The position numbers were made by a program, and so were the translations under genes. A stretch of DNA of 36,748 nucleotides from Propionibacteriaceae bacterium (GTDB lineage Bacteria > Actinomycetota > Actinomycetes > Propionibacteriales > Propionibacteriaceae), in assembly GCA_031272805.1 (NCBI GenBank), contig JAISTC010000117.1, positions 1-36,748 on the forward strand, read 5' to 3'. The notes below the pieces were generated by a model that was not told the origin of the DNA, ran no database searches, and saw only the letters and a program-made list of their open reading frames with translations. Each line of letters opens with the position of its first letter. Positions within the stretch are counted from its first letter, which is position 1. Shown here piece by piece: positions 15,433 through 34,609 of the stretch.

Positions 15433-15444
15433 CGTCGGAACCCC

Positions 15445-17566: not shown

Positions 17567-17616
17567 ACGCTGCCGCCCGGGCTCGTTCCTCGCCAAGGCT
17601 GCGGCATCAGACACCT
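17550..17616. repeat. Inverted GAGGTGTCAG element before the Phd-like gene
   Basis: GCCGAGGTGTCAGACGC and its near-inverse GCGGCATCAGACACCTCGGC frame the core GCTCGTTCCTCGCCAAGG. That core is the reverse complement of the core of the element at 1795-1878. It overlaps the end of the direct-repeat block. Confidence 0.6.
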
Positions 17617-18931: not shown

Positions 18932-19143
18932 CCGGCGCCGGCCTAGATCTTGGAGCTGTGGTACGCGTTGGTCGACGGAAGGATCCCGACTTTCGTCGGG
19001 ATGACAGGGGGACGGGATGACGAGGGGCGTGTGGCGAAGACCGTTGTCATCCCGACGGAAGTCGGGATCTTGAGCGGCGGAGGACAGCGCACGGAGCGAC
19101 CCCGGCCGACGGATGACTTCCTCCGGCCGCGGTGTCTGGCACC
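18932..19143. repeat. Right direct-repeat block flanking the Phd/RelE-like pair
   Basis: This is the second copy of the block at 17309-17566, same orientation, with a palindrome unit reversed at 18981-19005 and forward at 19046-19071. It ends in CCGCGGTGTCTGGCACC, a half-element of the GAGGTGTCAG family. It lies directly behind the permease stop and its hairpins may end the synthase operon. The 223 bp before it (18709-18931) hold no gene I can see, only another half-element near 18722. Confidence 0.75.
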
Positions 19144-19151: not shown

Positions 19152-20075
19152 TTAGTGGATGACGTGTTTCATGCGCCAGGTGCTGAGGGCTGTCAGTAGG
19201 ACGGCCCAGCTCAGGAGGACGACGATGATCAGGCTGGTGGGGAGGGTGTAGGTCGCCAGGTGGAGGGGGCCGGCGTCGAGGCCGCCGATGTCCAGGCTGA
19301 CGGCCAGGGAGCGGCTGAGGCCGGTGGACGCCTCGACCGCGTGCTCGGGGGAGACCGTGGTGACGATGCGGTCGATCGCGGGGGCCATGACCTGGCCCCG
19401 GATGAGCGCCGCGCCCTGGGCGAAGATCATGATGCCCAGGACGGTGTTGACGAGCGGGCTGAGGGAGACCGGTGGGACGTAGCAGAAGCCGAGGAAGCCG
19501 ATCGACGTGCCCATGACGATGGCGAAGCCGGCGAACGCCGCCCAGCTCGTGATGAACGTGGCGATGAGCGTGTTGAACGTGGCGAAGACGAGCGCGGACA
19601 GCGCGATCGCGCCGATCGCCCGGAGGATGGCCACGGGCCCCATGACTGCCTGGCCGAGCAGGAGGGCCCAGAGCGGCCCGGCCAGCATCAACAGCGTGGA
19701 GATGACCGTGGCCACGAGCCACGTCGACAGGATGTAGCCGAGCGCCAATTGCCAGCGCCGCACGGGGCTGACGAGGTAGTCGGAGAAGCGGCCGGTCTCG
19801 CGGTCGAGGACGAACGCGTTGAGCATCCCGAGCGTGCACGTGAACGTGGCCAGGAGCACGGCGCTGGCGAACAGCCACGAGTCGCACAGGCCGAGGATGT
19901 CCGAGACGGGCGTGTTGGGCAGGTCCTCCTCGATCTGGGTCGAGACCAGGTTCCGGTAGAAGATGATGAACAAGAAGATGAAGATGACGGGCGCCAGGAA
20001 CGTGAAGAACACGGTCAGGCGGTCTCTCAGGAAGGCCCGCAGGTTGCGGCGCACTAATACCCCGACGAGTCTCAT
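19152..20075 (-). CDS. ABC-2-type permease of the synthase operon exporter
   Basis: A 307-residue membrane protein. After a basic N-terminus (VGVLVRRNLRAFLRDR) there are about six hydrophobic segments: near 25-41, 70-88, 113-137, 148-180, 185-205 and 275-297. The segment around MLNAFVLDRETGRFSDYLVS is the loop typical of DrrB/ABC2_membrane permeases. It would form the membrane channel for the ATPase encoded just upstream; the genes overlap as ATGA. DrrB-type permeases export lipids, glycolipids or polyketide drugs. As the last gene of the synthase operon, it probably moves the product or its precursor outward. Confidence 0.85.
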   Translation of the reverse strand: MRLVGVLVRRNLRAFLRDRLTVFFTFLAPVIFIFLFIIFYRNLVSTQIEEDLPNTPVSDILGLCDSWLFASAVLLATFTCTLGMLNAFVLDRETGRFSDYLVSPVRRWQLALGYILSTWLVATVISTLLMLAGPLWALLLGQAVMGPVAILRAIGAIALSALVFATFNTLIATFITSWAAFAGFAIVMGTSIGFLGFCYVPPVSLSPLVNTVLGIMIFAQGAALIRGQVMAPAIDRIVTTVSPEHAVEASTGLSRSLAVSLDIGGLDAGPLHLATYTLPTSLIIVVLLSWAVLLTALSTWRMKHVIH

Positions 20076-21415
20076 CGGCGGCCCCCCAACGTGGGGCGCG
20101 TGACGGGGCGGCGGTGGGGCAGCGCGCCCGCCGTGTGGCGCCAGTCGGCGTGGGATTGGGAGTTGGGGGTCACGCTGTCCGCCAGGGCAGCGGGCACAGG
20201 CAGGTCGGCCGCGGTATCAGACACCGTTGGCTGCGCTCCTTCGTCGCTGCCGCGGTATCTGACACCTCGTCCTGGGGCGGCCGCGGTATCAGACACCGCT
20301 GGCTGCGCTCCTTCGTCGCTGCCGCGGTATCTGACACCTCGGCCTGGGGCGACACCTCGGCCTTGGTCGGGGTCGTCGGTCCAGGCGTGTCGGGGGTGGG
20401 CCGGGGCCGGCCGGCCGGTTGATCCTGGGTCCGGCCGGCCGGCGATCGGGGCCGGGGAGACCTCTGGGAGGGGCTCGGCCACGTGATCGCCCAGGTCGAT
20501 CACGCCGCCGCGCTCCGTCACGGTCAAGAAGACGTCGTCCATCGAACCGTGCCGGAACTCGAAGTCTTCCACCCACGGGTCCAGCTCGGCCAGCAGGTCC
20601 TTGGCCGACTCAGCATCTGAGACGTTCAGCACGAGCGGCCGGTCGGGGTTCCAGCCCGGCGGGGGCAGGCGGCGCAGCTCGGTCAGCCGGGCCTTGAGCC
20701 CGGGGCGGCGGGACAGCGTCAGCGTCAACTGGGAGCGGCTGTAGCGCTCGCGCAGGTCGGCCGGCGTCCCCGCGGCCACGATCTGGCCCGCGTCGATGAT
20801 GGAGACCTCGTCGGCCCGCTCCGTCTCCTCCATGTAGTGGGTCGTGAGGAACACGGTCATGCCCTGGGTTTGGCGCACGTCGCCGATGGCGTCCCAGACC
20901 TGCTCCCGGCTGTGCGGGTCGAGCCCGGCCGTCGGCTCGTCCAGGAACAGCAGGTGGGGGTTGTGGAGCAGCGCCCGGGCGATGTCCGCCCGCCGCTGCT
21001 GGCCGCCCGACAACTGGCCGTAGCGGCGGTCGATGAACTCGCCCAGGTCGAGCAGGTCGACCAGCTCGCCCACCCGCGCCTCGAACGCCGGGCCGACCAG
21101 GCCGTGGAACTCGCCGCGCAGTGCCAGGTTCTCCCGCACGGTCAGCAGCAGGTCCAGCAGCGGCCGCTGGAAGACGACGCCGATCGCGTCCCGGATCGCC
21201 TGGTCCTCCGCGCCCAGCCGGTAGCCGGCGACCGCGATGTCGCCCGCGTCGGGCTTGAGCAGGGTCGTCAGGCAATTGATCGTCGTCGACTTGCCCGCCC
21301 CGTTGACGCCGAGGAACGCGAAGAACTCGCCCTCGTGGACCGTGAAGTCGATGCCGCGCACGGCCTGGACGTCCTTGTAGGACTTCCAGAGATTCTCGAC
21401 CTTGATCGCCGTCAT
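20072..21415 (-). CDS. DrrA-like ABC transporter ATPase with repeat-derived tail
   Basis: A 447-residue protein. The nucleotide-binding domain (about 1-230) has Walker A GVNGAGKST (36-44), the signature LSGGQQRR, Walker B LLFLDEPTAGLD and a switch His in LTTHYMEE. The DrrA-type C-terminal domain follows to about residue 315. The last ~130 residues are unusual: Pro-rich, with two 24-residue repeats (GRGVRYRGSDEGAQPAVSDT and its near-copy) encoded by the 72-bp tandem DNA repeat at 20207-20350, an element of the intergenic GAGGTGTCAG family. Typical DrrA proteins end at 310-330 residues, so this tail looks like read-through into captured repeat DNA. Its start overlaps the hydrolase stop and its end overlaps the permease start, both as ATGA. 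Confidence 0.9.
   Translation of the reverse strand: MTAIKVENLWKSYKDVQAVRGIDFTVHEGEFFAFLGVNGAGKSTTINCLTTLLKPDAGDIAVAGYRLGAEDQAIRDAIGVVFQRPLLDLLLTVRENLALRGEFHGLVGPAFEARVGELVDLLDLGEFIDRRYGQLSGGQQRRADIARALLHNPHLLFLDEPTAGLDPHSREQVWDAIGDVRQTQGMTVFLTTHYMEETERADEVSIIDAGQIVAAGTPADLRERYSRSQLTLTLSRRPGLKARLTELRRLPPPGWNPDRPLVLNVSDAESAKDLLAELDPWVEDFEFRHGSMDDVFLTVTERGGVIDLGDHVAEPLPEVSPAPIAGRPDPGSTGRPAPAHPRHAWTDDPDQGRGVAPGRGVRYRGSDEGAQPAVSDTAAAPGRGVRYRGSDEGAQPTVSDTAADLPVPAALADSVTPNSQSHADWRHTAGALPHRRPVTRPTLGGRR
20207..20350. repeat. 72-bp tandem repeat (two copies) inside the ABC ATPase gene
   Basis: Copies 20207-20278 and 20279-20350 differ at only a few positions. Each holds GGCCGCGGTATCAGACACC, then GCGCTCCTTCGTCGCTG, then GCCGCGGTATCTGACACCTC. 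Since 72 is divisible by three, the copies stay in frame and encode the repeated tail of the ATPase. Half-elements continue to about 20368. Confidence 0.85.
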
Positions 21416-22224
21416 GGGTCGAGCCTAGTCGGAAGGGGGAGCGGAGCGGCCAGCGCGCGGGCCACGTGGCGGCGGGTCCAGCGCGTGCGGCGGACCGGGA
21501 GGTTGTGGTCGCCCCAGGTGGACGCGCGGGTCGCGCCGGCCAGGGACCGGGTGACGTCGCGCGCGTCCTGGCGCACGGGCGAGAACCAGCCCGACAGGAC
21601 GGCCGTGGGGGCGGTCACGGCCGCCAGGGCTGCGGCGCTCAGCCGGCCCGTGTCGGCCTCCAGGGCGGCGGTGAGAAGGCCGTCGGCCGCCAGGGACCGG
21701 GCCCGGGCCAGGCCGGTCGGCAGGCGCTCGCCCTGGGCCAGCCCCAGGTCGACGCGGGGCCAGGGGCCCGCCGGCCCGCGGGGGCCCGGGGCCGCGTCCG
21801 CCCAGGCCCGCAGGCCCGCGATGGCCGCGGGCCCCGTGACCGGGCCGACCAGGAAGGGCTCGACCAGGACCAGCCGCGTGATGCGGTCCGGCGCCGCCAG
21901 CGCCGTGGCCAGGGCCACGGCGGCGCCGAAGCTGTAGCCGACCAGCGCCGCCCGCTCGACGCCCAGCCGGTCCAGCAGCCCCGTGACGCGCCCCGCCAGC
22001 CGGTCGAGGCGGAAGGCGCCGTCCGCCGGGTCCGGCTCGGAGCGGCCGTGGCCGGGCAGGTCGAACAGGACGACGCGGTAGCGGTCGGCCAGTTCGAGGG
22101 CGCCGCACCAGTAGAAGACGGTGTGGTTGGTGAGGAGGCCGTGGACCATGACAACCGCCGCCCCCGCCGCGGGGTTCAGGTCGTTGACGAAGAGGTCGGG
22201 TCCACCCGGGTCAGCGGAGGCCAT
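21412..22224 (-). CDS. Alpha/beta hydrolase, probable release or editing thioesterase of the synthase
   Basis: A 270-residue protein. MVHGLLTNH (26-34) is the oxyanion loop, VVLFDLPGHGRSEP (51-64) the strand after it, and GYSFGAA (96-102) the nucleophile elbow with Ser98. STWGDHNLP near residue 235 supplies the probable catalytic His. The middle is a Pro/Gly/Ala-rich lid. Its start lies 14 bases inside the end of the acyl carrier protein gene, and its end overlaps the ATPase start. This placement suggests hydrolysis or transfer of acyl chains from the carrier proteins. Neither synthase shows a thioesterase domain of its own. Confidence 0.8.
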   Translation of the reverse strand: MASADPGGPDLFVNDLNPAAGAAVVMVHGLLTNHTVFYWCGALELADRYRVVLFDLPGHGRSEPDPADGAFRLDRLAGRVTGLLDRLGVERAALVGYSFGAAVALATALAAPDRITRLVLVEPFLVGPVTGPAAIAGLRAWADAAPGPRGPAGPWPRVDLGLAQGERLPTGLARARSLAADGLLTAALEADTGRLSAAALAAVTAPTAVLSGWFSPVRQDARDVTRSLAGATRASTWGDHNLPVRRTRWTRRHVARALAAPLPLPTRLDP

Positions 22225-22585
22225 CCCGCAGGCCGTCCGCGATCAGGTCGACGACGTCCCCGACGGTCAGCTTCATCATCTTGCGCAGCGGGATCTGGGA
22301 GACCTTGTCCATGACGAATTGCGTGTCGACGCCGTAGTAGGACTGGACCTTCTCGGCGACCTGGACGAACTCGATCGAGTCGAGGCCCAGGTCCTTGAAG
22401 AGGCGCGTGTCGGCCGTGACGTGGAGGAGGGCCATCGCCTCCGGGCCGATGACGGCCGCCAGCGAGTTGCGCAGGACCTCGACGACCTCCTCCCGCGGAT
22501 CGGGCGGCGCGATCGTGACCAGTTCGTACGAGCGGGCGGCGCCGGGCGGGGACGCCGTGTTCTGGGTGAAGTTTTCTTGTTCCAT
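22211..22585 (-). CDS. Stand-alone acyl carrier protein of the synthase operon
   Basis: A 124-residue protein. After a ~45-residue lead, residues about 46-120 form a carrier-protein fold. The phosphopantetheine attachment serine is in DLGLDSIEFVQVAEKVQ, and the LRKMMKLTVGDVVDLIADGL end forms the last helix. ATG 22585 overlaps the stop of the second synthase as TGATG. The N-terminal extension is longer than in fatty-acid ACPs (about 80 residues). The phosphopantetheinyl transferase domain at the end of the preceding gene is the obvious activating enzyme. It may carry the primer, serve as the second carrier beside the ACP in synthase 1, or hand the product to the hydrolase. Confidence 0.88.
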   Translation of the reverse strand: MEQENFTQNTASPPGAARSYELVTIAPPDPREEVVEVLRNSLAAVIGPEAMALLHVTADTRLFKDLGLDSIEFVQVAEKVQSYYGVDTQFVMDKVSQIPLRKMMKLTVGDVVDLIADGLRDGLR

Positions 22586-25500
22586 CAGATGGTCCATCCC
22601 ACGATGTGGTCGTCTTCGAGGCGGCGGGTGACGACCCGCGTGCCGGCGACGGAGAGAACCTCCCCGTCGACGGCTTCGACCGAGAAGCGCCGCGGGTTGC
22701 CGCGCAGCCCTTCGCCGGTCATCTTGGCGTAGGCCTCCTTGGCGACCCAGAAACGGGTCGCCCACTCGGCCTGATCGCCCTGCTCGGCCAGGAGTTCCAG
22801 CTCCGCCGGGTTGAAGGCGAGGTCGAGGAACCCCTGGTTCCTCTCCTCGATCCGCTCGAGATCCAGGCCGACAGGCCGGTCCGCCACGATGGCGGCCGCC
22901 CGGTCGGTCTTGTGGGCGAGGGAGACGTCGAGGCCCTCCCGGAGGGGCAGGCCCTCCCGGTCCGTCACGTAGACGCGGCCGGCCTCGTCGTAGCGGGTGG
23001 TGATCGCCACGGGGTAGGGCATCGCGTCGGCCGGCCAGAGGGCCCGGCGGACGGCGTCTTTCAGCGCCACCCGGCCCCACGTGAAGGCGCACTTGCCGTC
23101 CCACGACTCGATGTCCTCCAGGACCATGTTCTCGTCCCACGTCAGGTAGCGCAGCGCCACGAAGATGATCGCCTGCTGGTTCGGGTTGCGGTTGACGACG
23201 TAGAAGACGCCGGGGGCGACCTCCTCGGACATGACGGACCGCTCCGGGCGCATGACCACGTCCCAGATGGCCTCGTCGAAGCTCAGCCGCTGGTTGACCC
23301 AGCCCCGGTACGTCAGCCACGTCTGCCCGTCGCGCTCGTAAATCCCCTCGCCCGTGATGAAGTTGTCGGTCAGACCCTTGACGAACAGGCAGGCGTCGAA
23401 GGTCCCGTCCTGGTCGAACATGTCGCCGTAGAACTTGATCTCCGCCACCCGGACCGGGAAGGAGACCCGGTTGTCCTTCTCGTGGAGGTGGAGGAACAGG
23501 CCGATGGCCTGGCCGATCTGGTCGAGCAGCGACCCCTTGCCGGCGGCCTTGCGGACCTGTCCCTCCATGCCGCGGACGGCGTTGCGGGTCATGGCGACCG
23601 AGGAGTGGTAGGCCTCGCGGTGGAACGCGAAGTCGGCGTACGTCTCCTTGGGGCTGAACAGCGGCCCCGCGTCCTCGCCGAGCTGGGCCTCCAGCTCGGC
23701 CCGGTAGCCGGCGGGCGGCTCGGGGTAGGTCTCGGCGAACGTGACGTCCATCATGAGGTAGCCCTCGATCGTCAGCGACACCTGGACGTCCGACTTCCAG
23801 AAGCACTTGACGGCCGCCTCGAACGGCTCGTTCAGGCTCATGAAGTTCATCGCCGTGATCGGGCCCAGCCTGACCGGGTGGTAGGACTCGGGGATCTGCT
23901 GCCGGGCGAGTTCGACCATGAGCTCCAGGCTCATGGTCAGCGGCACGATCGGGTAGACCTCCTTCGGCCGGAACTCCTCCCAGCCGCGCGGCTGGCGGAC
24001 GATCGAGTGGTCGTACGTCAGCGGGTAGTCGCGGATGTCGATGACGAGCGGGACTTCTATCCGCTGGCCGCGGCGGTGCTTGGCCGCCCGCAACCCGGCC
24101 ATCGCCTGCGCCGCCTGTTCCGGCGTGACCGTCGACTTCTTGGCGCCCGCGCGGAAGTCCGCGATGGCCGACGCGCGCGAGCCCAGTTGCTCCGAGCTGG
24201 TCCAGTCCATGCCTTCTGCGCGCTTGGCGTCGGTGCGCCAGGTGGTCAGGCGGTTCTTGCGGGTGGTGGTGTCGGTATCCGGGGCGGCCGCGGTGTCAGG
24301 CCCCGTGGCTGTCGCAAGCTCCGTAGCCACGGTGCCAGACCCCACGGCCTGTGTAGCCACGGTGCCAGACCCCACGGCCTGCGCGGCTGCGGGGGGCGCC
24401 GGGGCGGTGGCCAAGGTGGCCGTTCGGCCGCCGCCCCGGATCGCCGCTGGACCGGCCGTGGCGGTCGCCAACAGGCCGCGGTCCCGAAATCGCCGGACGA
24501 CGTCGTGTTGCAACTGGATCGCCTGGCGGACGTTGTCGTCGAGGGCCTCGACGAGGGGGTTGGAGAGGTCGCCCAGGTCCTCGAGCCCGAGCCCGGCCGC
24601 GCTGGCGCCCGCGGCGGCCGCCGGGCCGTAGTACTGCTCGACCGCCTCGTCCAGCGACTGGAGGTCCTGGAGCAGGGGCGCGCCCTGGGGGATGTAGTAG
24701 ACGGACTTGGCCTCGCGGAACTCGGCCCGCATGCCGACGAACGCGATGTCGGCCATCGGGGAGCCCTCCGTGTAGAGGACGGCGTGGACGCGCCGGAGCT
24801 GGTCGAGCGAGACCCGGCCCGGCGTGGTCGTGCCGATCGACGCGAACTCGCGGCCCTTCAGCGTGTCGTCGACGAAGCCGGTCAGCGGCCCCGGCCCGAC
24901 CTGGATGAAGACCCGGGCGTCCTGCTCCGCGTACAGCTTCTCGATCAGCTCCCGGTAGCGGACGGGCTGGGACAGCTCGGCGGCGAACACCTCGGCCGCA
25001 CCCGCCGAATCCGCCGCCTGCGTCGTGTCGAGCTGGTCCAGCGTGACGGCCGACCACAGGGGATACGGCGACGGGTGGGTGGCGACCTGGCGCATGGCGA
25101 GGATCGGCACGTCCATGACCTGCTCGATGTACGGCGTGTGGAGGGCCGAGGCGAAGGGGAGGACCGTGTAGAAGGCCTTGGCCTCGTCGAGGATCCCCTT
25201 GACCAGGTCGAGCGACTCCGGCCCGAGGACGGAAATCACGATCTGGCTAGGGCAGTTGTCGTTCGACAGCGTCACGCCGGGGACGGCCAGGAGCCGCTGG
25301 CGGACGGCCGGGTCGATCTCCGAGGCGATGGCCACGAGCTTGAAGTCCGGGACCTCGTCCGGGTCGATCTGGAGGTTCGGGTCCTCGGCGAAATCGAGGA
25401 CGAGCCGGTCGAACGACTCGTCGAGGACGCCGATGGCCCGGGCCGCGAACCACTCGCCGACGCTGTGGCCCGTGTAGAGGTCCGGCGTGATGCCCGTCTT

Positions 25501-27354
25501 GAGCAGGGCCTCGTGGAGGAGCAGGCACGTGTAGTACTCGGCCGCCGCGTCGTGGATGACCGGGTCGTCGGTCGGGAAGTCCGTGTAGGGGATGTCCAAC
25601 TCGTCGACGACCGAGTCCCGCTCGGCCTCGCCCGTCAGCGAGTAGCCGGGGAACATGAACACGGTCTTGCCGCCGTCGCGCAGCAGCGGCTGGTTGGTGA
25701 ACCAGATGTCCGAGCGGCCCCGCCAGGGCTTGTCCGCCCGGATGATGTCGCAGGCCAGGGCGAGCCGCTCGGCGGTCGGGTTGAAGACGACGATCCGGTA
25801 GGGGTCGCCGGGCTGGCCGAGGAACGAGCCGATGTGGGAGGTGGCGTGCTTCATGTCGATGACGGAGAGGAGGTCCTCCTTGGTCTTCCCGGCGAGCGCG
25901 ATGACGTCGGGGAAGTACTGGCGGCGCCGGTCCACGCGGTAGCGGCGGGCCTGCGCGGCCGGCTCCTGGTAGGCGGTGAGGACGGCGTGGGCGTTGGCGC
26001 CGCCGAAGCCGAAGGCGTTGACGCCGGCCACGAGGGGCAGCCCCGCCTCCTCCCAGTCGATCAGTTCCTGGGCCGGCTCGAAGCGTGACTTGGCCATCGC
26101 CGTCAGCGGCTTCTCGCAGTGCAGCGTCGGCGGGATCTGGCGGTGGAACAGCGCCAGGATCGTCTTGATGAGGCCGAACATGCCGGCCGCCGGCATCGTG
26201 TGGCCGATGTTCGATTTGACCGATCCCAGGTAGGCGCGCGGGTGGGTCGCGTCGCCGAAGAACTCGGTCAGCGTCTGGAGCTCGTTGGCGTCGCCGATCT
26301 GGGTGGCCGTGCCGTGGGTCTCGACGTAGCCGACCTGCTCGGGGTCGAGGCCGCACTTGCGCCACGCCTCCTCCAAGACCCGCCGCTGGCCCGCGGGGTT
26401 CGTGACCAGCGCGTTCGTGCCGGCGCCGTCGGAGCCCGTGGCCGTGGCCTTGATAACCGCGTAAATCCGGTTGCCGTCCTTCTCCGCCTGTTCCAGCGAC
26501 TTGATGACGAGGAAGCCGGCCCCCTGGCCGATGAGGAGGCCGTCGGCGTCCTGGCTGAATGGCGCGATGACGCCGCGCTTGCTCATCGCGCCCATGACGT
26601 TGAAGGCCGACCAGAAGACGGAGTTCTGGCCGGTGTGCATGGCGCCGATGACGGCCGAGTCGCACTCGCCCACCTGGATGAGCCGGATGCCATGTTCGAG
26701 GGCCACGACGCCGGAGGCGCAGGCGGCGTCGACGACGTAGGCGGGGCCGTGGATGTCGTAGCGGTGGGCCACGCCGGCGGCCACGAGGTTCGGCATGTTG
26801 GCCGTCACGGTGTCGCCCTGGTAGCGGCCGAAGCGGGACTGGTAGTCCTTCTTGATCTTGTCGATGGCCTCGTCGGGCAGGAGCGGCAGCGCGGCCTTGA
26901 GGATGCGCGTCAGCGACTCGGCCGTGCGGACCATCTCCGAGCTGATGAGCTGGGGCAGGCCGGCGAACTGGCCGCGCCCGACGATGACGCACGACCGGGT
27001 CAGGTCCTGGCCCAGCATGCCGGCGTCGGCCAGGGCGAAGTCGGTCAGCATGAGCGAGACGAGCTGGTCGGGGTCGGCGCCGTCGGCGGCGATCGGCAGG
27101 AGGCCGTAGCGCAGCGGGTCCGTCACGATGCGGTCGGTGAAGCCGCCCCGGTTGTTGTAGAAGCGGTCGACCTGGGAGTTGTCCTTGGCGCCGAAGTAGA
27201 ACGGCTCGATGATCTCGGGCGGCACCTCCGTGATGAGGTCCGCCCCCTCGGACAGGTTCGACCAGAACGAGCCCACGGAAAAGCCGCCTGGCGCGCCAAC
27301 GGCCAGGCCGACGACCGCGATATCGCGGTCGGACCGGGGAGGCAGTTCCGGCAT
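22585..27354 (-). CDS. Synthase 2: KS-AT-DH-phosphopantetheinyl transferase, Pfa/secondary-lipid type
   Basis: A 1589-residue multidomain enzyme. KS (about 10-450): Cys212 in DAACASG, His in ETHGTATQIGD and His in SNIGHTMPAAG. AT-like (about 545-870): Ser631 in GHSVGEW, though the usual FPGQGSQ entry is FPGYSLTG. A linker at about 985-1025 contains near-repeats of AVGSGTVAT. Hotdog/DH (about 1095-1380): His1116 in LTYDHSIV. PPTase (about 1440-1589): GLDLERIEE and FWVAKEAYAKMTGEGL. A C-terminal PPTase on the synthase is known from enediyne-type and some Pfa-type systems and would make the cluster self-activating. Start: ATG 27354 (MPELPPRSDRDIAVVG), 52 bases after synthase 1; a TTG at 27366 is in frame but less likely. 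No ACP and no KR were found here, so it must act on carriers supplied in trans. Confidence 0.88.
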   Translation of the reverse strand: MPELPPRSDRDIAVVGLAVGAPGGFSVGSFWSNLSEGADLITEVPPEIIEPFYFGAKDNSQVDRFYNNRGGFTDRIVTDPLRYGLLPIAADGADPDQLVSLMLTDFALADAGMLGQDLTRSCVIVGRGQFAGLPQLISSEMVRTAESLTRILKAALPLLPDEAIDKIKKDYQSRFGRYQGDTVTANMPNLVAAGVAHRYDIHGPAYVVDAACASGVVALEHGIRLIQVGECDSAVIGAMHTGQNSVFWSAFNVMGAMSKRGVIAPFSQDADGLLIGQGAGFLVIKSLEQAEKDGNRIYAVIKATATGSDGAGTNALVTNPAGQRRVLEEAWRKCGLDPEQVGYVETHGTATQIGDANELQTLTEFFGDATHPRAYLGSVKSNIGHTMPAAGMFGLIKTILALFHRQIPPTLHCEKPLTAMAKSRFEPAQELIDWEEAGLPLVAGVNAFGFGGANAHAVLTAYQEPAAQARRYRVDRRRQYFPDVIALAGKTKEDLLSVIDMKHATSHIGSFLGQPGDPYRIVVFNPTAERLALACDIIRADKPWRGRSDIWFTNQPLLRDGGKTVFMFPGYSLTGEAERDSVVDELDIPYTDFPTDDPVIHDAAAEYYTCLLLHEALLKTGITPDLYTGHSVGEWFAARAIGVLDESFDRLVLDFAEDPNLQIDPDEVPDFKLVAIASEIDPAVRQRLLAVPGVTLSNDNCPSQIVISVLGPESLDLVKGILDEAKAFYTVLPFASALHTPYIEQVMDVPILAMRQVATHPSPYPLWSAVTLDQLDTTQAADSAGAAEVFAAELSQPVRYRELIEKLYAEQDARVFIQVGPGPLTGFVDDTLKGREFASIGTTTPGRVSLDQLRRVHAVLYTEGSPMADIAFVGMRAEFREAKSVYYIPQGAPLLQDLQSLDEAVEQYYGPAAAAGASAAGLGLEDLGDLSNPLVEALDDNVRQAIQLQHDVVRRFRDRGLLATATAGPAAIRGGGRTATLATAPAPPAAAQAVGSGTVATQAVGSGTVATELATATGPDTAAAPDTDTTTRKNRLTTWRTDAKRAEGMDWTSSEQLGSRASAIADFRAGAKKSTVTPEQAAQAMAGLRAAKHRRGQRIEVPLVIDIRDYPLTYDHSIVRQPRGWEEFRPKEVYPIVPLTMSLELMVELARQQIPESYHPVRLGPITAMNFMSLNEPFEAAVKCFWKSDVQVSLTIEGYLMMDVTFAETYPEPPAGYRAELEAQLGEDAGPLFSPKETYADFAFHREAYHSSVAMTRNAVRGMEGQVRKAAGKGSLLDQIGQAIGLFLHLHEKDNRVSFPVRVAEIKFYGDMFDQDGTFDACLFVKGLTDNFITGEGIYERDGQTWLTYRGWVNQRLSFDEAIWDVVMRPERSVMSEEVAPGVFYVVNRNPNQQAIIFVALRYLTWDENMVLEDIESWDGKCAFTWGRVALKDAVRRALWPADAMPYPVAITTRYDEAGRVYVTDREGLPLREGLDVSLAHKTDRAAAIVADRPVGLDLERIEERNQGFLDLAFNPAELELLAEQGDQAEWATRFWVAKEAYAKMTGEGLRGNPRRFSVEAVDGEVLSVAGTRVVTRRLEDDHIVGWTI
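24284..24390. repeat. In-frame repeat in the linker of synthase 2
   Basis: The 62 bases 24291-24352 match 28996-29057 in synthase 1 with two differences that I count. Inside it, a 30-bp unit around GTAGCCACGGTGCCAGACCC is repeated (period 24331 to 24361). It begins GGCCGCGGTGTCAGGCCCC, resembling the intergenic GAGGTGTCAG family. Confidence 0.75.
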
Positions 27355-27406
27355 ATGGGGTCCCAATCTGTTGTCTTTCCTGTGGTGTCCGATCTGTGGG
27401 GGTCGG

Positions 27407-30400
27407 TTAGTCGGGGGTCACGCCCGGCGGGGCGGCGACGGCGGCGAAGACCTGGTCGATGAAGCCCTCGATCTCGGCCGAGCGGCCCGCCACGGCGATC
27501 AGCAGCGGGTCGTGGCCGTCGGTCAGCTCGCCGACGAGGAAGTCCGCGCCGAGGGAGAGCGGGATGAGCGAGAGGCCGCGCTTCTTCATCTCGGTCTCCA
27601 GGGTGGTCGAGACCATGCCCGCGCCCTTCCACGGCCCCCACGCCACGGCCACGGCCTTGGCCGGGGCGCCGCGCCGGTGGAGGACGAACGACAGCGTGTC
27701 GAAGACCGAGTTGGCGGCGGCGTAGTCGCACTGCCCCCGGTTGCCGAACGACGCGGCCATCGAGGAGAACAGGACGACCAGCTTGAGCTCGTCGAGCATC
27801 GGCCCGAGGACCTTCAGCGGGTCGGTCTTGGTCGTGTAGACCCGCTCGAACGAGTCCCACGTCTTGTCCTTGAACAGCTTGTCCTCGAGGACGGCGGCGG
27901 CGTGGAAGACCGCGTCGACGTGGCCGCGCTCCCGCTTCAGCCGGTCGACCAGGCCCTGGAAGGCGGCCTCGTCGTGGAGGTCGACGGCGGCGTACTCGGC
28001 CGTGGCCCCGCCGGCCTCGATCTTGGCCAGCGCCGTCTCGACGGACTTGGCCTTGAGGATCGACTGGACCCGGCCCTTGATCAGCTTGGGCTGGTCGAAG
28101 CCCTCGACCGTGATGAGGTGCTTCTGGAGGGCCGCGCCGTCGTCGAGGCCGGCGTAGGCGGCGGCCAACTCGGCGTCACGCGGGGTGCGGCCGACCAGGA
28201 CGTAGTGGCAGGGCTTGTGCTCGGCCAAGCGGGCCATGAGGTCCGGCGAGATGCCCTGGGCGCCGCCCAGGACAAGGACGACCGAGTCCTTGTCCAGGAG
28301 GTCCGTCAGCGAGGCCCCGTTGCCCGACGCGGTGGGCTCGCCGCCCGCCGCCGGCTGGACGGCCGGGAGGAAGCGGACCCGCTCGGCCCCGTCGTAGACG
28401 ATGGCGGGGAACCGGTCGGCGTCGGTCAGCTCGGCGGTCACCAGCGCCGGCACGGCCGCCGGGTCGAACGGCTGCAGCGCGTCGACGACCCGGACTCGCT
28501 TGTCCTGGTACTCGACCTGGAGCGTCTTGAACAGCCCGTCGAAGCCCTGGATGTCCGCCACGCCGGCGAGGTCGGCGGCGGCGATCAGCGTCCCGGCCGT
28601 GTCGTCGAACAGCGTCAGCCACTCGACGCGGCCCATGTCGGCGGCCTTGACCAGCGCGAAGACCTGTTCCAGGGTCAGCGGCGTCCCGGCCGTGTGGGAG
28701 TTGACGAAGACGAGGCCGTCCGTGGCCGACAGGTCCGCGCCCTCGGCGCTCGGCACCAGATCGACCAGCGCGCCGAGGTCGCCCAACGCCGCCACCAGCG
28801 CGTCGCCGACGGCCGGGTCGGCGGCGCAGACGGCGAAGCGCTTGCCCTCCAGCGACAGGGGTTCGCCCGCCGGGTGCGGGTACGGGTACAGCGAGATGGC
28901 CAGGCGCACGACTTCCAACTCGTCGTCGGACAGGTTGCTGGCGTGGGCGGCCAGGTCGGTGATCGTGGGCAGGGAAGACATACGGGGGGCGGCCACGGTG
29001 TCAGGCCCCGTGGCTGTCGCAAGCTCCGTAGCCACGGTGCCCGACCCCATGGCCTGTGCCGCGGTGCCCGACCCCGTGGCCTCTGCCGCGGTGCCCGACC
29101 CGGTGGCCTCGGCCTCTGGGGCCGCCTCCAGCGCCTTCGGCGCGGCGCCCGCGGCGCCGGCCTTGGCGCGGTCGAGGTACTCGTCGAACTCGCCTGCCTG
29201 CGCCTGGCCGACGATCTCCTGGAGCCATTCGATCATGCCGCGCAGCGTCTTGATGGCCGCCATGCGCTCAAGGGCCTCGGCGGAGTCCTCCTCCGACAGG
29301 CCCATCGCCTCGACGTCGGGCAGCTCGATGCGCTCGTTCAGCGAGCCCATGATCTCGAGCCGCTTGATCGAGTCGATCGAGAGGTCGGCCTCCAGGTCCA
29401 TGTCCAGGCCGAGCATCTCCGGCGGGTAGCCGGTCTTCTCGGAGACGACCTCGATGACGATGTCGTGGACCATCTCGGGCGTGAGGTCCTTCAACTGGAG
29501 CAGGACCGAGGCGGACTCGTCGTCCTCGATCTCGCCCTCCAGGACGACGACCTCCTGCGACGCCACCGGCTCCAACTCCTGGCCCGGCAGGGCCGCCTCG
29601 ACCCGCGCCCGGGCGCCCGGCTGGTAGCCCAGGTAGCCGAGCAGGACGTCACGCTGGTCGTCGAGGACCGACCGGACGTTGGCCAGGTACGTCTGGACGA
29701 CGTCTTCCGGGGTCGTGCCGGCGGGCGCTCCCAGCGCGCCGGGGCCGCCCAGGTTCTCGGCCCGCATCTGGCGGAGCTGCTCCTCCGTGTATTGGCTCTT
29801 GCGCTCCAGGTGTTCGTAGCCCTGGTCGCGCCACTGGGCGATGGGGACGGCCTCCAGGCCGTCGACCATGAAGACGGTCTTGTTCTGGGCGTGCTTCGTC
29901 GGCTCGGCCAGGTCGACGGGCGTGGCCCGGCGGCCTTCGAACAGCTTGGCGAAGTCGAGTTCGCGGCCGGTCGCCACCCAGCGGGCCAGCGCGTCGAGGA
30001 ACGTCACGATGCCCGCGCCGTCGCGCTCGGTCTGGATCGCCGTGACGGTGTCGCCGAGGGTATCGCGGACGAGGCCCGTCAGGATGCCGCCGGGGCCGGC
30101 CTCGACGAAGACCCGGGCCCCCGCCTCGTACATGCCGCGCAGCTCGTCCGCGAAGCGGACGGGCTGGACGAGCTGGCCGGCGATCTGGCGCCGGATGGCG
30201 GCGGCCGTCGCCGGATACGGCTGGGCCGTCGTGTTCGACCACACGGGCACGCCGGCCTTGCCCAGCTTGACCGGCTTGAGGGCGGCGGCGAACGCCTGGT
30301 CGGCGCCCGCCACGAGCGGGGTGTGGAACGCGCAGGCGACCTCGACCGGCGTGGCCTTGACGCCCTTCTCCTTGAGCTGGGCGAGGAACGCCGCGACCGC

Positions 30401-33400
30401 CTCGGTCGAGCCGCCGACGACGGTCTGGCGCGGCGAGTTGAGGTTGACCGCCCAGACGCCCTCGACGCCCTCCAACAGGCGCGCGACTTCCTCGGCGCCG
30501 GCCGAGACCGCAGCCATCGTGCCGGGGTCGGCGCCGGTCGCGCCGAGGATGGCCTCGGCCCGCTGGCGCGACAACCCAGGCAGGTCGGCCGCCGGGAGCA
30601 CCCCGGCAAAGCTCAAGGCCGCGAGCTCGCCGTAACTGTGGCCCGCCACCAGGTCCGGCACCACGCCGACTCGGCCGAGCGCGCGGGCGATGGCCAGGTC
30701 GACGAAGCCGAGGAGGGGCTGGGCGTGGCGGGTGTCCGTCACGGCCGCCTGCTGGGCCTTCCGCTCCGCGTCCGTGAACACGGACGGAGGGAAGATCAAG
30801 GAGAAATACTCCGGGTAGGCCGCGAGGTCGTCGCGGAGCCCGGGGAACAAGACGAACAACTCGCGGGCCATGTTGACCCGCTGGCTGCCCTGGCCGGAGA
30901 ACAGGAACGCCACCTGGCCGGGCTTGGGCTCCCGCCGGTAGACGCCGGGGGCGGGCCCGTCGCCGAGGGCCGCGTCGATCTTGGCCAGGAGGTCCGCCCA
31001 GTTCTTGGCCACGAAGGCGACCTGGATGTCGCCCTCCGACTGGGCCAGCGTCAGCGCCACGTCGGCCAGGCCGAGGTACCGATTGACGTCCCACAGCGCC
31101 TTGACCTGGCGCATCTGCTGGCGGGCGGCCGCGGCGTCGGCGCCGCGGAAGACGATCAGCTCGGCCGGCCACGCCTTGAGGACCGGCTCGTCGGGGACCT
31201 GGGCCTCGTAGTTCTGCAGGATCGTGTGGTAGTTCGTGCCGCCGAAGCCGAAGCCGGAGACCCCGGCCAGGCGCCGCTCGGCCGTCCACGGCTTGGCCGT
31301 GCCGTTGGCGTTGAACACGAGCGGGCTGCGCCCCGGCACATACGTCCGGACGGGCTTCTCCAGGTGGATGGTCGGCGGGATGACGCCGTGGTAGAGCGAC
31401 AGGGCGGCGCGGATGACGCCGGCCACGCCGGCGGCGCACTTGGCGTGGCCGATCTGCGTCTTGACCGACCCGGCGTAGATCTGGGCCGGCAGCGCGCCCG
31501 CGTCGAGCATGATGTTGGTCAGCGCCAGGAGCTCCGTCCGGTCGCCGACCGACGTGCCCGTGCCGTGGGCCTCGATCAGCCCGACCTCCGACGGCAGCAG
31601 CCCCGCCATCTCGTAGGCCCGCTTGACCGCCCGGGTCTGGCCCGCGATGTTCGGGGCCGTCAGGCCGAGCGAGCGGCCGTCGGACGAGCCGTGGACGCCG
31701 CGGATGACCGCGTAGATGCGGTCGTGGTCACGTTCGGCGTCCGACAGGCGCTTGAGGACGAGCGCGCCCGCGCCCTCGCCCGGCGTCAGGCCGTCGCCCG
31801 ACTCGTCGAACGTGGCCGTGAAGCCGCGCCGCGACAGGGCGTACGTGGCGTTGAAGAACAGGTAGTCGAGGATCGAGTTGTGGAGGTCGACGCCGCCGCA
31901 GACGACCATGTTCGACCGGTCCATCCACAGCTCCTGGCAGGCCAGGTCGATCGATGCCAGCGACGAGGCGCAGGCCGCGTCGACCGTGTAGTTGCGGCCG
32001 CCGCAGTTGAGCCGGTTGGAAATCCGCCCCGACGTGACGTTGGAGAGGACGCCCGCGAACGAGTCCTCGGTCAGCCGCGGCAGGGCCTCGGAGACGTCGT
32101 CCGGCAGCGAGCCGAGCAGTTGCCTGATGCCCGGCCGGGAGCCGTAGGCGCTCGACAGCTCGCCCATCGCCTCGACGCCGAAGATGACCGACGTGTCCTG
32201 GAACATGTTCGACTTGAAGTCCGTGTAGCCCGCGTCCTCCAGCGCCCGCTTGGCGACCAGGAGGCCGATGAGCTGGGTCGTCTCGATCGAGTGGACCGAC
32301 TGGGGCGTGACGCCGAACTCGAGCGGGTCGAACTCGGCCGGGGACAGGAACGAGCCCCACTTGGAGCAGACGAAGTCCGTGTCCTGCGTCTCCGGGTTGT
32401 AGAAGACGTCGGCGTCCCAGCGGGACTTGGGCACTTCGATGACCGTGTCGACGCCCATGACGACGTTGCGCCAGTACTCGTCGACGTTGTCGGCCTGCGG
32501 GAAGATGCCGGCCATGCCGATGATGGCGATGGGCTCGGCCTTGGGGTCGGGGGTCCGGTCGGTCCGGTGCCGCTTGGGCTGGTCCGGCGCGTCCAGCGTC
32601 ACGCTGGGCGCCAGCCCCGCGATCAGCTCGGCCGCCGCCGTGGTCACGGCCGCGTGCGTGGCCGCGATCGGCCGGGGGTCGTGGATCAGCGCCGTGATGT
32701 CGCCGCACATGAACATGCCCTGCTCGGTCTGCTGCTTGGGCGTCAGCTTGACCAGTTTGCGGCCGCCGTTGCCGGGCTGGTCCGGCGCCACGGCGGCGTC
32801 GCCGAGCGCCGCGCGGGCCCCGGCGTGGGTCACCTCGGTCTTGTGGTCGGCCCGGTCGACGCCCTTGCTGGCGATCCGGGCGCGGCCCAGGTTGAGCTCC
32901 TCGAGGGCGGCCCGCTTGGCGACGTCGTCGAGGTCGAGCGCCTGGACGCGGGCCTTCTCGGCCAGGAAGAAGTCGGCGAACGGCGTCGGCAGGACGCGGG
33001 TCTCCTGGCCCTTGGCCGACTCGAGGAGGAGGGTCCCCTCGGCCTCCAGGGCGATCTCCTGGAAGCGCTGGGTGATGGCGTGGGTGGCGACGGCCTCGGG
33101 CGAGAACAGGTAGGCGCTGCCGAGCAGGAGGCCGACCTTGGCGCCGCGGGCCGCGACGGACGCCGTCATGATCGACACGAAGGCGGAGCTGAGGGCGTCG
33201 TGGAGGCCGCCCGCGAAGACCAGGCTGAGCGAGGCGGGGTCGTCCGCGTCGATGACGTGGAACAACATCCGTTCCCACAGCAGCGCCGACGGGGTCGGGC
33301 CAACGTGGCCGCCGGACTCGCGGCCCTCGAAGATGAAGCCGCGCGCGCCCTCCTTGACGTACTGGTCGAACAGGGTCGGGGACTGGATGTGGAGGAACGC

Positions 33401-34609
33401 CTGGATGCCGGCGGCCTCGAACTTCTTGCCCTGGGCGACGCGGCCACCCGCGATGACGACGGCCGTCGGCTTGTTCGCCAGCGCGAAGATGCGCTCGACC
33501 TGGTCGTCGAAGACCCGCGGCTCCATGAAGCCCAGCAGCCCGGCGGCCCACGGCCGCCCGGCCAGTAGCGCGCTGGCGCCGTCGAGCAGGTCCTGGGCGG
33601 CGCCGTCGGCAGCGAGGCCCATCGCCAGGCTGGGCAGGCCGCCCGCCTCGGCCACCTTGAGGAGGAACTCCGGTTCGTCGCTGACCCGGGCCATCGGGCC
33701 CTGGATGACGGGGAACTCGGTCCCGAGGGCTTGGGCGAACGGGCTGTGGGGCCGGATGGGCGGCGTGGCCTGGGCCTGGCGGAGGTGGCCGTAGGCGGCC
33801 TCGTGGACGGCCCGGACGTAGAACTTGAGGGTCGTGTAGTGGGTCACGAGCTCGCCGGCCAGGGCGAAGTCCTGGCCGGTCGGCAGGAACTGGGTCTCGA
33901 TGTCGTAGCCGCCGACCAGCTTGAGGACGTCGGCTTCCGCCGCGTCGTCGGCCAGGTGGGGCCCGGCCGGCCAGCGCAGGACGCGGAAACCGCCGATGAG
34001 TTGGGTCTCGCCGCCGTTGAGTTTGGCCAGCGTCGCCTTGAGGTCCTTCGGCAGGCTGGCCTCGGGGAACAGCGCGACCTGGGAGTCGACCAGGACGGCG
34101 TCGGCGCCGAGGGCCCAGTAGGCGGCGGTGTTGTGGACGCCGGCGCCGCCGTGGACCACGAGTCGGACGCCCTGGTCGCGGCAGGGGCCGAGGAGGCCCT
34201 GGAACAGCAGGAAGGCGGACTCCTGACCGACCCGGCCGCCGGCCTCGGCGCCCTTGACGGCGAGGTCCGTCACGCCCGCGGCCAGCGCGGCGCGGCCCTC
34301 GGCCAACGACGTCACCTGCCAGATGACGCGGGCGCCGGCGGGCGGCGTGACCTTCTCCCCCCAGGCGGCGACGACCGTGTTGACCTGGTCGGGCAGGGTG
34401 AGATCGGGGAAGGGCGACCCGGGGGCGTAGACGACGCCGAACGGCTCGGCCGTCGCGTCGGCCAGCTCGGCCAAAGCGGCGGCGGCGCGGTCGGCGTCAC
34501 GTCCCAGGTGGAGCAGGGCCTTCGCCCCCGCCCGGATCGTCTCCACCGCGAGACGCACATCGGGCATTTCGAACGGGGAGGAGACGAATAAACCTCTGTT
34601 AACTCTCAC
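27407..34609 (-). CDS. Synthase 1: two enoyl-reductase-like barrels-KS-AT-ACP-KR, Pfa/secondary-lipid type
   Basis: A 2400-residue enzyme. Barrel 1 (about 1-300) has KGAEAGGRVGQ with Arg126 where FabK/nitronate-monooxygenase enzymes have His; barrel 2 (about 325-640) has EGRESGGHVGP with His435. KS (about 690-1140): Cys880 in DAACASS, His in EAHGTGTSVGD and in QIGHAKCAAG. AT (about 1232-1540): Ser1325 in GHSYGE. ACP (about 1715-1800): Ser1747 in ADLSIDSIKRLE. A repeat linker follows (about 1833-1875). KR (about 2100-2350): LVLGGAQGIS, an FSSMAASFGN strand and DYAAANSVFD. Barrel 2 probably supplies enoyl reduction as PfaD does in polyunsaturated fatty acid synthases. The GTG 34609 start follows GAGAAGG by eight bases, with an in-frame stop seven codons upstream; ATG 34567 would cut into the conserved first strand. 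First gene of the six-gene operon. Confidence 0.9.
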   Translation of the reverse strand: MRVNRGLFVSSPFEMPDVRLAVETIRAGAKALLHLGRDADRAAAALAELADATAEPFGVVYAPGSPFPDLTLPDQVNTVVAAWGEKVTPPAGARVIWQVTSLAEGRAALAAGVTDLAVKGAEAGGRVGQESAFLLFQGLLGPCRDQGVRLVVHGGAGVHNTAAYWALGADAVLVDSQVALFPEASLPKDLKATLAKLNGGETQLIGGFRVLRWPAGPHLADDAAEADVLKLVGGYDIETQFLPTGQDFALAGELVTHYTTLKFYVRAVHEAAYGHLRQAQATPPIRPHSPFAQALGTEFPVIQGPMARVSDEPEFLLKVAEAGGLPSLAMGLAADGAAQDLLDGASALLAGRPWAAGLLGFMEPRVFDDQVERIFALANKPTAVVIAGGRVAQGKKFEAAGIQAFLHIQSPTLFDQYVKEGARGFIFEGRESGGHVGPTPSALLWERMLFHVIDADDPASLSLVFAGGLHDALSSAFVSIMTASVAARGAKVGLLLGSAYLFSPEAVATHAITQRFQEIALEAEGTLLLESAKGQETRVLPTPFADFFLAEKARVQALDLDDVAKRAALEELNLGRARIASKGVDRADHKTEVTHAGARAALGDAAVAPDQPGNGGRKLVKLTPKQQTEQGMFMCGDITALIHDPRPIAATHAAVTTAAAELIAGLAPSVTLDAPDQPKRHRTDRTPDPKAEPIAIIGMAGIFPQADNVDEYWRNVVMGVDTVIEVPKSRWDADVFYNPETQDTDFVCSKWGSFLSPAEFDPLEFGVTPQSVHSIETTQLIGLLVAKRALEDAGYTDFKSNMFQDTSVIFGVEAMGELSSAYGSRPGIRQLLGSLPDDVSEALPRLTEDSFAGVLSNVTSGRISNRLNCGGRNYTVDAACASSLASIDLACQELWMDRSNMVVCGGVDLHNSILDYLFFNATYALSRRGFTATFDESGDGLTPGEGAGALVLKRLSDAERDHDRIYAVIRGVHGSSDGRSLGLTAPNIAGQTRAVKRAYEMAGLLPSEVGLIEAHGTGTSVGDRTELLALTNIMLDAGALPAQIYAGSVKTQIGHAKCAAGVAGVIRAALSLYHGVIPPTIHLEKPVRTYVPGRSPLVFNANGTAKPWTAERRLAGVSGFGFGGTNYHTILQNYEAQVPDEPVLKAWPAELIVFRGADAAAARQQMRQVKALWDVNRYLGLADVALTLAQSEGDIQVAFVAKNWADLLAKIDAALGDGPAPGVYRREPKPGQVAFLFSGQGSQRVNMARELFVLFPGLRDDLAAYPEYFSLIFPPSVFTDAERKAQQAAVTDTRHAQPLLGFVDLAIARALGRVGVVPDLVAGHSYGELAALSFAGVLPAADLPGLSRQRAEAILGATGADPGTMAAVSAGAEEVARLLEGVEGVWAVNLNSPRQTVVGGSTEAVAAFLAQLKEKGVKATPVEVACAFHTPLVAGADQAFAAALKPVKLGKAGVPVWSNTTAQPYPATAAAIRRQIAGQLVQPVRFADELRGMYEAGARVFVEAGPGGILTGLVRDTLGDTVTAIQTERDGAGIVTFLDALARWVATGRELDFAKLFEGRRATPVDLAEPTKHAQNKTVFMVDGLEAVPIAQWRDQGYEHLERKSQYTEEQLRQMRAENLGGPGALGAPAGTTPEDVVQTYLANVRSVLDDQRDVLLGYLGYQPGARARVEAALPGQELEPVASQEVVVLEGEIEDDESASVLLQLKDLTPEMVHDIVIEVVSEKTGYPPEMLGLDMDLEADLSIDSIKRLEIMGSLNERIELPDVEAMGLSEEDSAEALERMAAIKTLRGMIEWLQEIVGQAQAGEFDEYLDRAKAGAAGAAPKALEAAPEAEATGSGTAAEATGSGTAAQAMGSGTVATELATATGPDTVAAPRMSSLPTITDLAAHASNLSDDELEVVRLAISLYPYPHPAGEPLSLEGKRFAVCAADPAVGDALVAALGDLGALVDLVPSAEGADLSATDGLVFVNSHTAGTPLTLEQVFALVKAADMGRVEWLTLFDDTAGTLIAAADLAGVADIQGFDGLFKTLQVEYQDKRVRVVDALQPFDPAAVPALVTAELTDADRFPAIVYDGAERVRFLPAVQPAAGGEPTASGNGASLTDLLDKDSVVLVLGGAQGISPDLMARLAEHKPCHYVLVGRTPRDAELAAAYAGLDDGAALQKHLITVEGFDQPKLIKGRVQSILKAKSVETALAKIEAGGATAEYAAVDLHDEAAFQGLVDRLKRERGHVDAVFHAAAVLEDKLFKDKTWDSFERVYTTKTDPLKVLGPMLDELKLVVLFSSMAASFGNRGQCDYAAANSVFDTLSFVLHRRGAPAKAVAVAWGPWKGAGMVSTTLETEMKKRGLSLIPLSLGADFLVGELTDGHDPLLIAVAGRSAEIEGFIDQVFAAVAAPPGVTPD
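28986..29110. repeat. In-frame 27-bp repeat array in the ACP-KR linker of synthase 1
   Basis: Three 27-bp units of the GCCGCGGTGCCCGACCCCGT type follow a 62-base segment (28996-29057) shared with synthase 2. The units encode 9-residue repeats such as EATGSGTAA. The length keeps the frame open. The sequence lies just after the single ACP domain. Confidence 0.75.

What the first reader, a model, noticed from the sequence alone, without database searches (positions are those of the whole stretch)
19152..34609. Six-gene lipid/polyketide synthase operon with unusual two-protein architecture and exporter
Seen: ER-like x2-KS-AT-ACP-KR, then KS-AT-DH-PPTase, free ACP, hydrolase, ABC ATPase and ABC-2 permease; after a 52-base gap between the synthases, all following junctions overlap. 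Known: Pfa-type synthases use KS/AT/ACP/KR, DH and a PfaD-type reductase, and 'secondary lipid' relatives of unknown product are widespread; enediyne PksE ends in a PPTase. Inference: an iterative system that activates its own carriers, makes a reduced or partly unsaturated long chain, releases it with the hydrolase and exports it. The DrrAB-like exporter argues for a surface or secreted lipid rather than a housekeeping fatty acid.
Basis: partly seen in the sequence, partly recalled or inferred. Interest (0 to 1): 0.78.

Follow-up and report, generated by a model that had tools for sequence, protein, structure and literature searches.

The report
Two-protein lipid factory with exporter
An actinobacterium carries a two-protein assembly machine that probably builds a long, fully reduced fatty chain; in most relatives examined the matching genes are followed by a sugar-adding enzyme, but in this genus that place is taken by an export pump.

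Summary
The six genes exist as stated, intact, on the minus strand. They are not unique. The first four (ER*-ER-KS-MAT-ACP-KR; KS-AT-DH-PPTase; free ACP; alpha/beta hydrolase) form a block recurrent in actinomycetes, matching a published, product-less 'secondary lipid synthase' layout (Renibacterium, listed as Type M by Shulse and Allen). KS1 groups next to Beijerinckia's Type P synthase; Azotobacter's Type P makes C22-C26 chains (Azotobacter sequences not compared). Two conserved deviations: the first ER lacks its catalytic His in 28 of 28 readable sequences (pseudo-ER), and the second AT lacks the malonyl-binding Gln and Arg at their places in 23 of 23, as reported for PfaB, the terminal long-chain acyltransferase. 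PKS-type dehydratase, one ACP and no CLF argue against polyunsaturated products. New here: outside the genus a UDP-glycosyltransferase follows the hydrolase in 15 of 16 loci with the full block; in 12 of 12 synthase-bearing genus genomes it is missing and a DrrAB-like ABC exporter stands there. Most likely an iterative FAS making a long saturated or hydroxylated chain, moved by AT2 to the free ACP, released and exported without that glycosylation. The product is unproven.

The parts
27407..34609 (-). Whole gene S1, 2400 aa
33755..34609 (-). S1 domain ER1*: FabK/NMO-like barrel, catalytic His replaced (pseudo-ER)
   Evidence: FabK E 1.7e-5; A2 profile matches FabK structures over this part; His absent in 28 of 28 readable sequences
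32690..33754 (-). S1 domain ER2: FabK/NMO-like enoyl reductase with intact ESGGHVG motif
   Evidence: NMO E 6.1e-12, FabK E 4.3e-11, His in 28 of 28 readable
31040..32545 (-). S1 KS1 (Cys-His-His intact)
29930..30952 (-). S1 AT1: malonyl-type (Gln, Ser, Arg, His present); approximate ends
   Evidence: Acyl_transf_1 E 4.7e-37; residues
29240..29542 (-). S1 single ACP (DSIK); approximate ends
   Evidence: PP-binding 1717-1769; one ACP motif
27407..28972 (-). S1 KR with its structural half; approximate start
   Evidence: KR 2110-2328, E 2.9e-32; Tyr and Asn
22585..27354 (-). Whole gene S2: KS2-AT2-DH-PPTase (ATG start; upstream TTG at 27366)
25942..27342 (-). S2 KS2 (Cys-His-His intact)
24727..25686 (-). 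S2 AT2: Ser-His kept, malonyl Gln and Arg not at their places; approximate ends
   Evidence: Acyl_transf_1 E 5.7e-10; residues
23107..24081 (-). S2 DH, PKS-type; approximate ends
22585..23046 (-). S2 PPTase (VSLAH motif, no P0 motif); approximate start
   Evidence: ACPS E 3.9e-14; motifs
22211..22597 (-). Free ACP (GLDSIE)
   Evidence: PP-binding E 2.2e-6
21412..22224 (-). alpha/beta hydrolase (GYSFG, GDHN)
   Evidence: Abhydrolase_1 E 3.5e-24; motifs
20072..21415 (-). DrrA-like ABC ATPase with a repeat-bearing tail
   Evidence: ABC_tran E 1.6e-32; drrA 261.7 bits, below its cut-off of 312.45
19152..20075 (-). ABC-2-like permease
   Evidence: hydrophobic segments; weak Pfam hit; homologue at E 6e-63 or better in 12 of 12 synthase-bearing genus genomes

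Best explanation
A type I iterative fatty-acid ('secondary lipid') synthase of the actinobacterial fused pfaDA / pfaBC-PPTase kind, with its own exporter. Proposed steps, all inferred from residues and gene order: the PPTase at the end of S2 loads the ACPs; AT1 loads malonyl units; KS1, and KS2 probably in later rounds, condense; KR, the PKS-type DH and ER2 reduce each unit; ER1* is a non-catalytic partner of ER2. The product is a long, saturated or partly hydroxylated chain. AT2, which lacks the malonyl-binding residues, moves the finished chain to the free ACP; the hydrolase releases it where present; the DrrAB-like pump exports it. In the window's genus the glycosylation gene of the relatives' operons is missing and this pump stands in its place.
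For: Domains and residues. KS1 clade (99/96) next to Rhodobacteraceae SC52 (98/89), then Beijerinckia and Methylosinus (96/86), then a PfaA-like group (99/98). Beijerinckia's S1 has the same ER1*-ER2-KS-AT-ACP-KR order and a separate DH-PPTase. Type P chains: behenic acid, C22-26 (PMC3098273); ArsA makes C23-C25 acids (PMC4824345, introduction passage). AT2 lacks Gln and Arg at their places in 23 of 23, as PfaB does (PMC12895367 discussion, first part). In G009 AT2's Ser and His, the free ACP and the hydrolase are all missing. Exporter permease at E 6e-63 or better in 12 of 12 synthase-bearing genus genomes against 1 of 7 without. GT right after the hydrolase in 15 of 16 outside loci, 0 of 12 at the genus operons.
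Against: No product of a fused-type member turned up in my searches. The chain-length argument is indirect: Azotobacter sequences were not compared, Beijerinckia is reported not to have been found to produce phenolic lipids, and Type P lacks KS2. The hydrolase is missing in the closest relative G008. AT2 keeps GHSxG, not the GYSxG reported for PfaB, and 6 of 23 AT2 have an Arg one residue after the expected place. An ABC ATPase lies within the fetched stretch in 4 of 16 outside loci, and in G415 the ABC pair stands without the synthase. The ER1-ER2 front end is missing in 7 of 19 genus genomes. Related genomes are not independent samples.
Confidence: 0.55

Rival explanations
1. The chain is still glycosylated, by an enzyme encoded elsewhere, and a glycolipid is exported, as in heterocyst glycolipid systems.
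For: 15 of 16 outside operons carry a GT gene, UDPGT-type in the Streptomyces plasmid copy that was scanned. Other kinds of sugar transferases were not searched in this genome.
Against: The relatives' GT has no match at E 1e-5 in the window's genome and only 3 weak partial matches in 19 genus genomes.
Confidence: 0.2
2. KS2 carries out a final condensation on the chain handed over by AT2, so that a beta-keto acid or ketone is released rather than a plain fatty acid.
For: KS2 Cys-His-His intact in 22 of 22 readable sequences; the Beijerinckia Type P locus, with KAS III-like (type III PKS) genes, shows no KS2-AT2 in its DH-PPTase protein.
Against: In G009 KS2 stays intact although AT2's residues, free ACP and hydrolase are lost, which fits an elongation role better.
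Confidence: 0.12
3. A polyunsaturated or polyene product (PUFA- or enediyne-like).
For: Best NCBIfam model for S1 is PfaA (867.6 bits, below its cut-off of 1010.1); the DH-PPTase ending recalls PksE (recalled, not compared).
Against: ER2 His intact in 28 of 28 readable; DH PKS-type with no FabA-family hit; one ACP in the genus copies; no CLF; PPTase without the P0 motif.
Confidence: 0.07
4. The ABC pair is a self-protection or unrelated drug pump that only shares the transcript.
For: DrrA similarity; ABC pair alone in G415.
Against: Overlapping junctions; co-occurrence; hydrolase and ATPase are one ORF in G001 and G006.
Confidence: 0.12

Closest known systems
Secondary lipid synthase of Renibacterium salmoninarum (listed under Type M by Shulse and Allen 2011)
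   Same: Fused pfaDA plus fused pfaBC with PPTase, actinobacterial, PPTase P1b' of the M-T kind
   Different: The text read describes no exporter and no glycosyltransferase exchange; no named Type M sequence was compared
Four-gene block plus glycosyltransferase on Streptomyces plasmids NBC_01243 and NBC_00984
   Same: S1, S2, ACP, hydrolase in the same order; S2 34% identical over 82%
   Different: GT and methyltransferase follow; no DrrAB pair in the fetched stretch
Type P (ArsA/ArsD) phenolic-lipid fatty acid synthase, compared through Beijerinckia
   Same: ER1*-ER2-KS-AT-ACP-KR and DH-PPTase
   Different: No KS2-AT2; two genes annotated as KAS III C-terminal-domain proteins (type III PKSs by PMC3098273) stand between; the window's genus has no PF00195 match over the cut-off in 19 genomes
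PUFA synthase PfaABCD(E)
   Same: KS-MAT-ACP-KR core; AT2 resembles PfaB in lacking Gln and Arg
   Different: No tandem ACPs, no CLF, no FabA-family DH hit, no PfaD-family ER hit; the KS beside AT2 is intact

Membership tests
Type M secondary lipid synthase | Fused pfaDA and pfaBC-PPTase arrangement (as stated for Renibacterium) | tested here: met
   description from PMC13291983 section 7; Renibacterium under Type M in PMC3098273 Table 2. Figure 1 of that paper was not available
Type M secondary lipid synthase | PPTase: P1a x(G/D)xP, P1b' hShxH, no P0 | tested here: met
   EGLP, VSLAH, no P0 match; criteria from PMC3098273 section 8. These motifs are shared by several of Types M-T, so they do not single out M
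Type M secondary lipid synthase | Proximal KS groups with Frankia, S. avermitilis, Actinosynnema, Renibacterium | tested here: inconclusive
   Groups with Streptomyces NBC_01243 and unnamed actinomycetes; no named Type M sequence was at hand
Type P (Ars) synthase | S1 of ER1*-ER2-KS-AT-ACP-KR and a DH-PPTase | tested here: met
   against Beijerinckia; in the window the DH-PPTase is only the second half of S2
Type P (Ars) synthase | Type III PKS partner | tested here: not met
   0 of 19 genus genomes over the PF00195 cut-off; 3 sub-threshold matches, one in the window's genome
PUFA synthase | Tandem ACPs (5-9) | tested here: not met
   One ACP motif in S1
PUFA synthase | PfaD-family ER | tested here: not met
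   Each ER half hits only the FabK model at E 0.01 in NCBIfam
PUFA synthase | KS-CLF and FabA-type DH | tested here: not met
   One KS stretch in S2, followed by AT; PS-DH hits, no FabA-family hit
PfaB-type terminal acyltransferase (AT2) | Malonyl Gln/Arg pair lost, Ser-His kept | tested here: met
   Gln motif lost in 23 of 23, Arg absent at its place in 23 of 23 but one residue later in 6, Ser and His kept in 22 of 23
PfaB-type terminal acyltransferase (AT2) | Tyr before catalytic Ser, pseudo-KS next to it | tested here: not met
   GHSVG and an intact KS2
Enediyne PksE | Single KS-AT-ACP-KR-DH-PPTase protein without ER (recalled) | tested here: not met
   Two proteins, intact ER2; PksE sequences themselves not compared

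The most novel reading that the evidence does not exclude
A host-associated actinobacterial genus has turned an ancestral glycolipid assembly line into a secreted-lipid system: the glycosyltransferase was exchanged for a dedicated exporter. The megasynthase carries a conserved, catalytically dead enoyl reductase fused in front of the live one, an in-chain pseudo-dimer, shared with the Type P (phenolic-lipid) synthase kin.
Probability: 0.32. Interest if true: 0.6.

Novelty: new variant of a known kind. Interest (0 to 1): 0.45.

Why it matters
Product-less secondary lipid synthases of this kind are frequent in actinomycetes (the ER-ER front end is in 53 of 393 other class genomes sampled). The kinship with Type P gives a testable prediction of a saturated very long chain, the 16-locus comparison predicts a glycolipid outside the genus, and the exchange of GT for exporter predicts a secreted, differently finished lipid inside it. 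The pseudo-ER/ER tandem is a testable structural idea, related to the ERb-ERc heterodimer solved for a thraustochytrid PUFA synthase (PMC13311796: abstract and sections 2.1 and 2.5 read).

Tried and rejected
PUFA product: judged unlikely on DH type, ACP number, missing CLF and ER family. Alkylresorcinol-type product: judged unlikely, no type III PKS family match over the cut-off in 19 genus genomes, some of them incomplete. Structure prediction of the DH region and of the ER tandem never ran, so both fold statements rest on sequence profiles. The scan of genome contigs with S2 gave one relative. Paper searches listed no paper that I recognised as naming a product for this type; I opened only the papers cited plus PMC11804610 and PMC9137090 (find passages only), and the library misses most subscription papers. 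A model with the hydrolase as obligatory releasing enzyme was dropped when G008 and G009 proved to lack the gene. Rfam: no match over gathering thresholds in the window. A first count of the AT2 Arg on 10 sequences was replaced by one on 23.
Full report
WHAT IS THERE. The window is the whole of contig C15 (36748 bases) of a 2.96-Mb draft genome in 239 contigs, 88.8% complete. The six genes lie as described on the minus strand. Pfam gives, for S1, nitronate-monooxygenase-type ER, KS, AT, ACP, KR, and for S2 KS, AT, PPTase; the other genes are an ACP, an alpha/beta hydrolase, an ABC ATPase closest to DrrA in NCBIfam and a hydrophobic protein with only a weak ABC-2 hit. A profile of the S2 region between AT and PPTase finds CurK, PksJ and CurF structures, and 13 of 22 aligned homologues hit PS-DH; the window's own copy is among the 9 that do not.

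KINSHIP OF THE HOST. One same-genus genome (G006) is the MAG 'Propionibacteriaceae bacterium Gsp477_bin63': its fetched 20 kb is identical to JAIRYW010000044.1. Another bin of the same sample code, Gsp477_bin129, is stated to come from the lower termite Glyptotermes (PMC11707648, one passage seen). That the window's own genome comes from a termite gut is a guess.

DISTRIBUTION. The ER1-ER2 front end is found in 54 of 394 class genomes, own included, in 13 of 138 genera, and in 12 of 19 genomes of the genus; 3 of the 12 genus genomes of good quality lack it. I fetched one locus each from 20 of the 53 other positive class genomes, besides two Streptomyces plasmid loci. Two of the 20 (L060, L074) are cut by contig ends. 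Of the other 18, 16 carry S2, ACP and hydrolase in the same order; L067 shows part of S2 without ACP or hydrolase, L068 only S1. In 15 of the 16 a glycosyltransferase follows at once on the same strand (not in L072); a methyltransferase like that of the Streptomyces plasmids is near in 8 of 16. The two plasmid records show the same order with annotated GT and methyltransferase; the GT is of UDPGT type. An ABC ATPase stretch 32-45% like the window's lies within the fetched 20 kb in 4 of the 16 (L062, L070, L072, L075); the one scanned (L062) is of another build, ATPase fused to a transmembrane domain. The window's permease matched none of the 20 outside loci.

THE GENUS-SPECIFIC SWAP. In the 12 synthase-bearing genus genomes the ABC ATPase is the next gene after S2/ACP/hydrolase in 12 of 12, with the permease behind it on the same contig in 11 (in G009 it is on another contig). 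In G411, G412 and G012 S1 and the tail lie on different contigs, and in G012 the tail contig starts inside the ACP, so continuity is inferred there. The hydrolase is present in 10 of 12 (not G008, G009), the free ACP in 11 of 12 (not G009), the GT in 0 of 12. Genome-wide, the relatives' GT has 3 weak partial matches in 19 genus genomes, 2 of them in synthase-bearing ones, none in the window's genome. All 19 genomes have some related permease at E 1e-5, but one at E 6e-63 or better is in 12 of 12 synthase-bearing and 1 of 7 other genomes; if the genomes were independent the chance of 12 of 12 would be 2.6e-4, but they are not.

RESIDUES (29 S1 and 23 S2 sequences). ER1 lacks the catalytic His in 28 of 28 readable (mostly Arg); ER2 has it in 28 of 28. 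KS1 Cys-His-His, AT1 Gln-Ser-Arg-His and ACP Ser are kept in 29 of 29; KR Tyr and Asn in 27 of 27 readable. KS2 Cys-His-His is kept in 22 of 22 readable; DH His and Asp in 23 of 23. AT2 lacks the GQGSQ motif in 23 of 23 and the Arg at its place in 23 of 23, though 6 have an Arg one residue later; Ser and His are kept in 22 of 23, the exception being G009. PPTase Asp is kept in 20 of 23 and Lys in 20 of 22 readable; the departures (L062, L067, L070) are outside the genus. That the ER His is catalytic follows PMC13311796 section 2.5; that loss of Gln and Arg marks a long-chain acyltransferase follows PMC12895367 (discussion, first of two parts).

KS TREE. 68 KS sequences, drawn with a midpoint root. 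KS1 of the genus and class form a clade (99/96), next to Rhodobacteraceae SC52 (98/89), then Beijerinckia and Methylosinus (96/86), then KSs of tandem-ACP, PfaA-like synthases from Persicobacter, Azospirillum, Rhodococcus and Streptomyces (99/98). SC52 is a flagged long branch, so its place is unsure. KS2 forms its own clade (100/100). [quoted passage not shown] Its S1 shows the same ER1*-ER2 front end, with Gln at the ER1 His place (Arg in Methylosinus), and its DH-PPTase is a separate protein. Chains of Type P in Azotobacter are C22-C26 by the papers cited; I did not compare Azotobacter sequences.

INFERENCE. The intact KR, PKS-type DH and ER2 and the Type P kinship point to a saturated long chain, with hydroxyls if some rounds skip DH. 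AT2, free ACP and hydrolase look like an off-loading unit: G009 has lost AT2's active residues, the free ACP and the hydrolase, while KS2 stays intact; this is one case, and G008 has lost the hydrolase alone. Giving KS2 the late elongation rounds follows PfaC's role as told in PMC12895367 (introduction) and is inference. Export by the ABC pair is inference from overlap, co-occurrence and two hydrolase-ATPase fusions (G001 and G006).

PRIOR WORK. Shulse and Allen (PMC3098273, sections 5 and 8 read; figures not held) and PMC13291983 (section 7 read) describe the type without a product. I saw no description of the GT-for-exporter exchange or of the dead first ER in the passages opened or in the listings of searches; that is a limited library. 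The finding is a new variant of a known kind rather than a new system.

Noticed in passing
window 20204-20344 (ATPase tail), 24277-24384 (S2 linker), 28985-29107 (S1 linker); also 17198-17259, 17598-17615, 19126-19143: Dispersed repeats. The unit GGTGTCWGATACCGCGGC lies in frame in the ATPase tail and between genes: 11 near-matches in the window against 0.08 expected, 24 exact copies in this genome and 0 in 18 other genus genomes. A related 69-base form lies in frame in the S1 and S2 linkers and has 54 matches in this genome, a lower bound (40 of 269 candidates scored). It recalls in-frame palindromic elements of Rickettsia (recalled).
   Followed up: partly
window 34918-36748 (+): Divergent gene for a secreted-looking protein with a long Pro-Ser repeat, open at the contig end. 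Homologue (41%) at the same divergent place in G008 and a 24% one downstream of the permease in G005, there with invasin-like and Ig-like domains.
   Followed up: partly
window 2094-3722 (+): BglII-like restriction endonuclease next to an MT-A70 methyltransferase: a likely restriction-modification pair.
   Followed up: no
L110 (G415:C56:58001-76000) 13187-15063: DrrAB-like pair of the operon type without the synthase genes in the fetched 18 kb; the genome has no ER1-ER2 match.
   Followed up: no
L029 (G009) 9184-15687: Variant operon: AT2 active Ser and His lost, no free ACP or hydrolase found between S2 and the ATPase.
   Followed up: partly
L064, L065, L075: WS/DGAT-type acyltransferase gene beside the synthase in three outside loci, upstream in two and downstream in one.
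   Followed up: no
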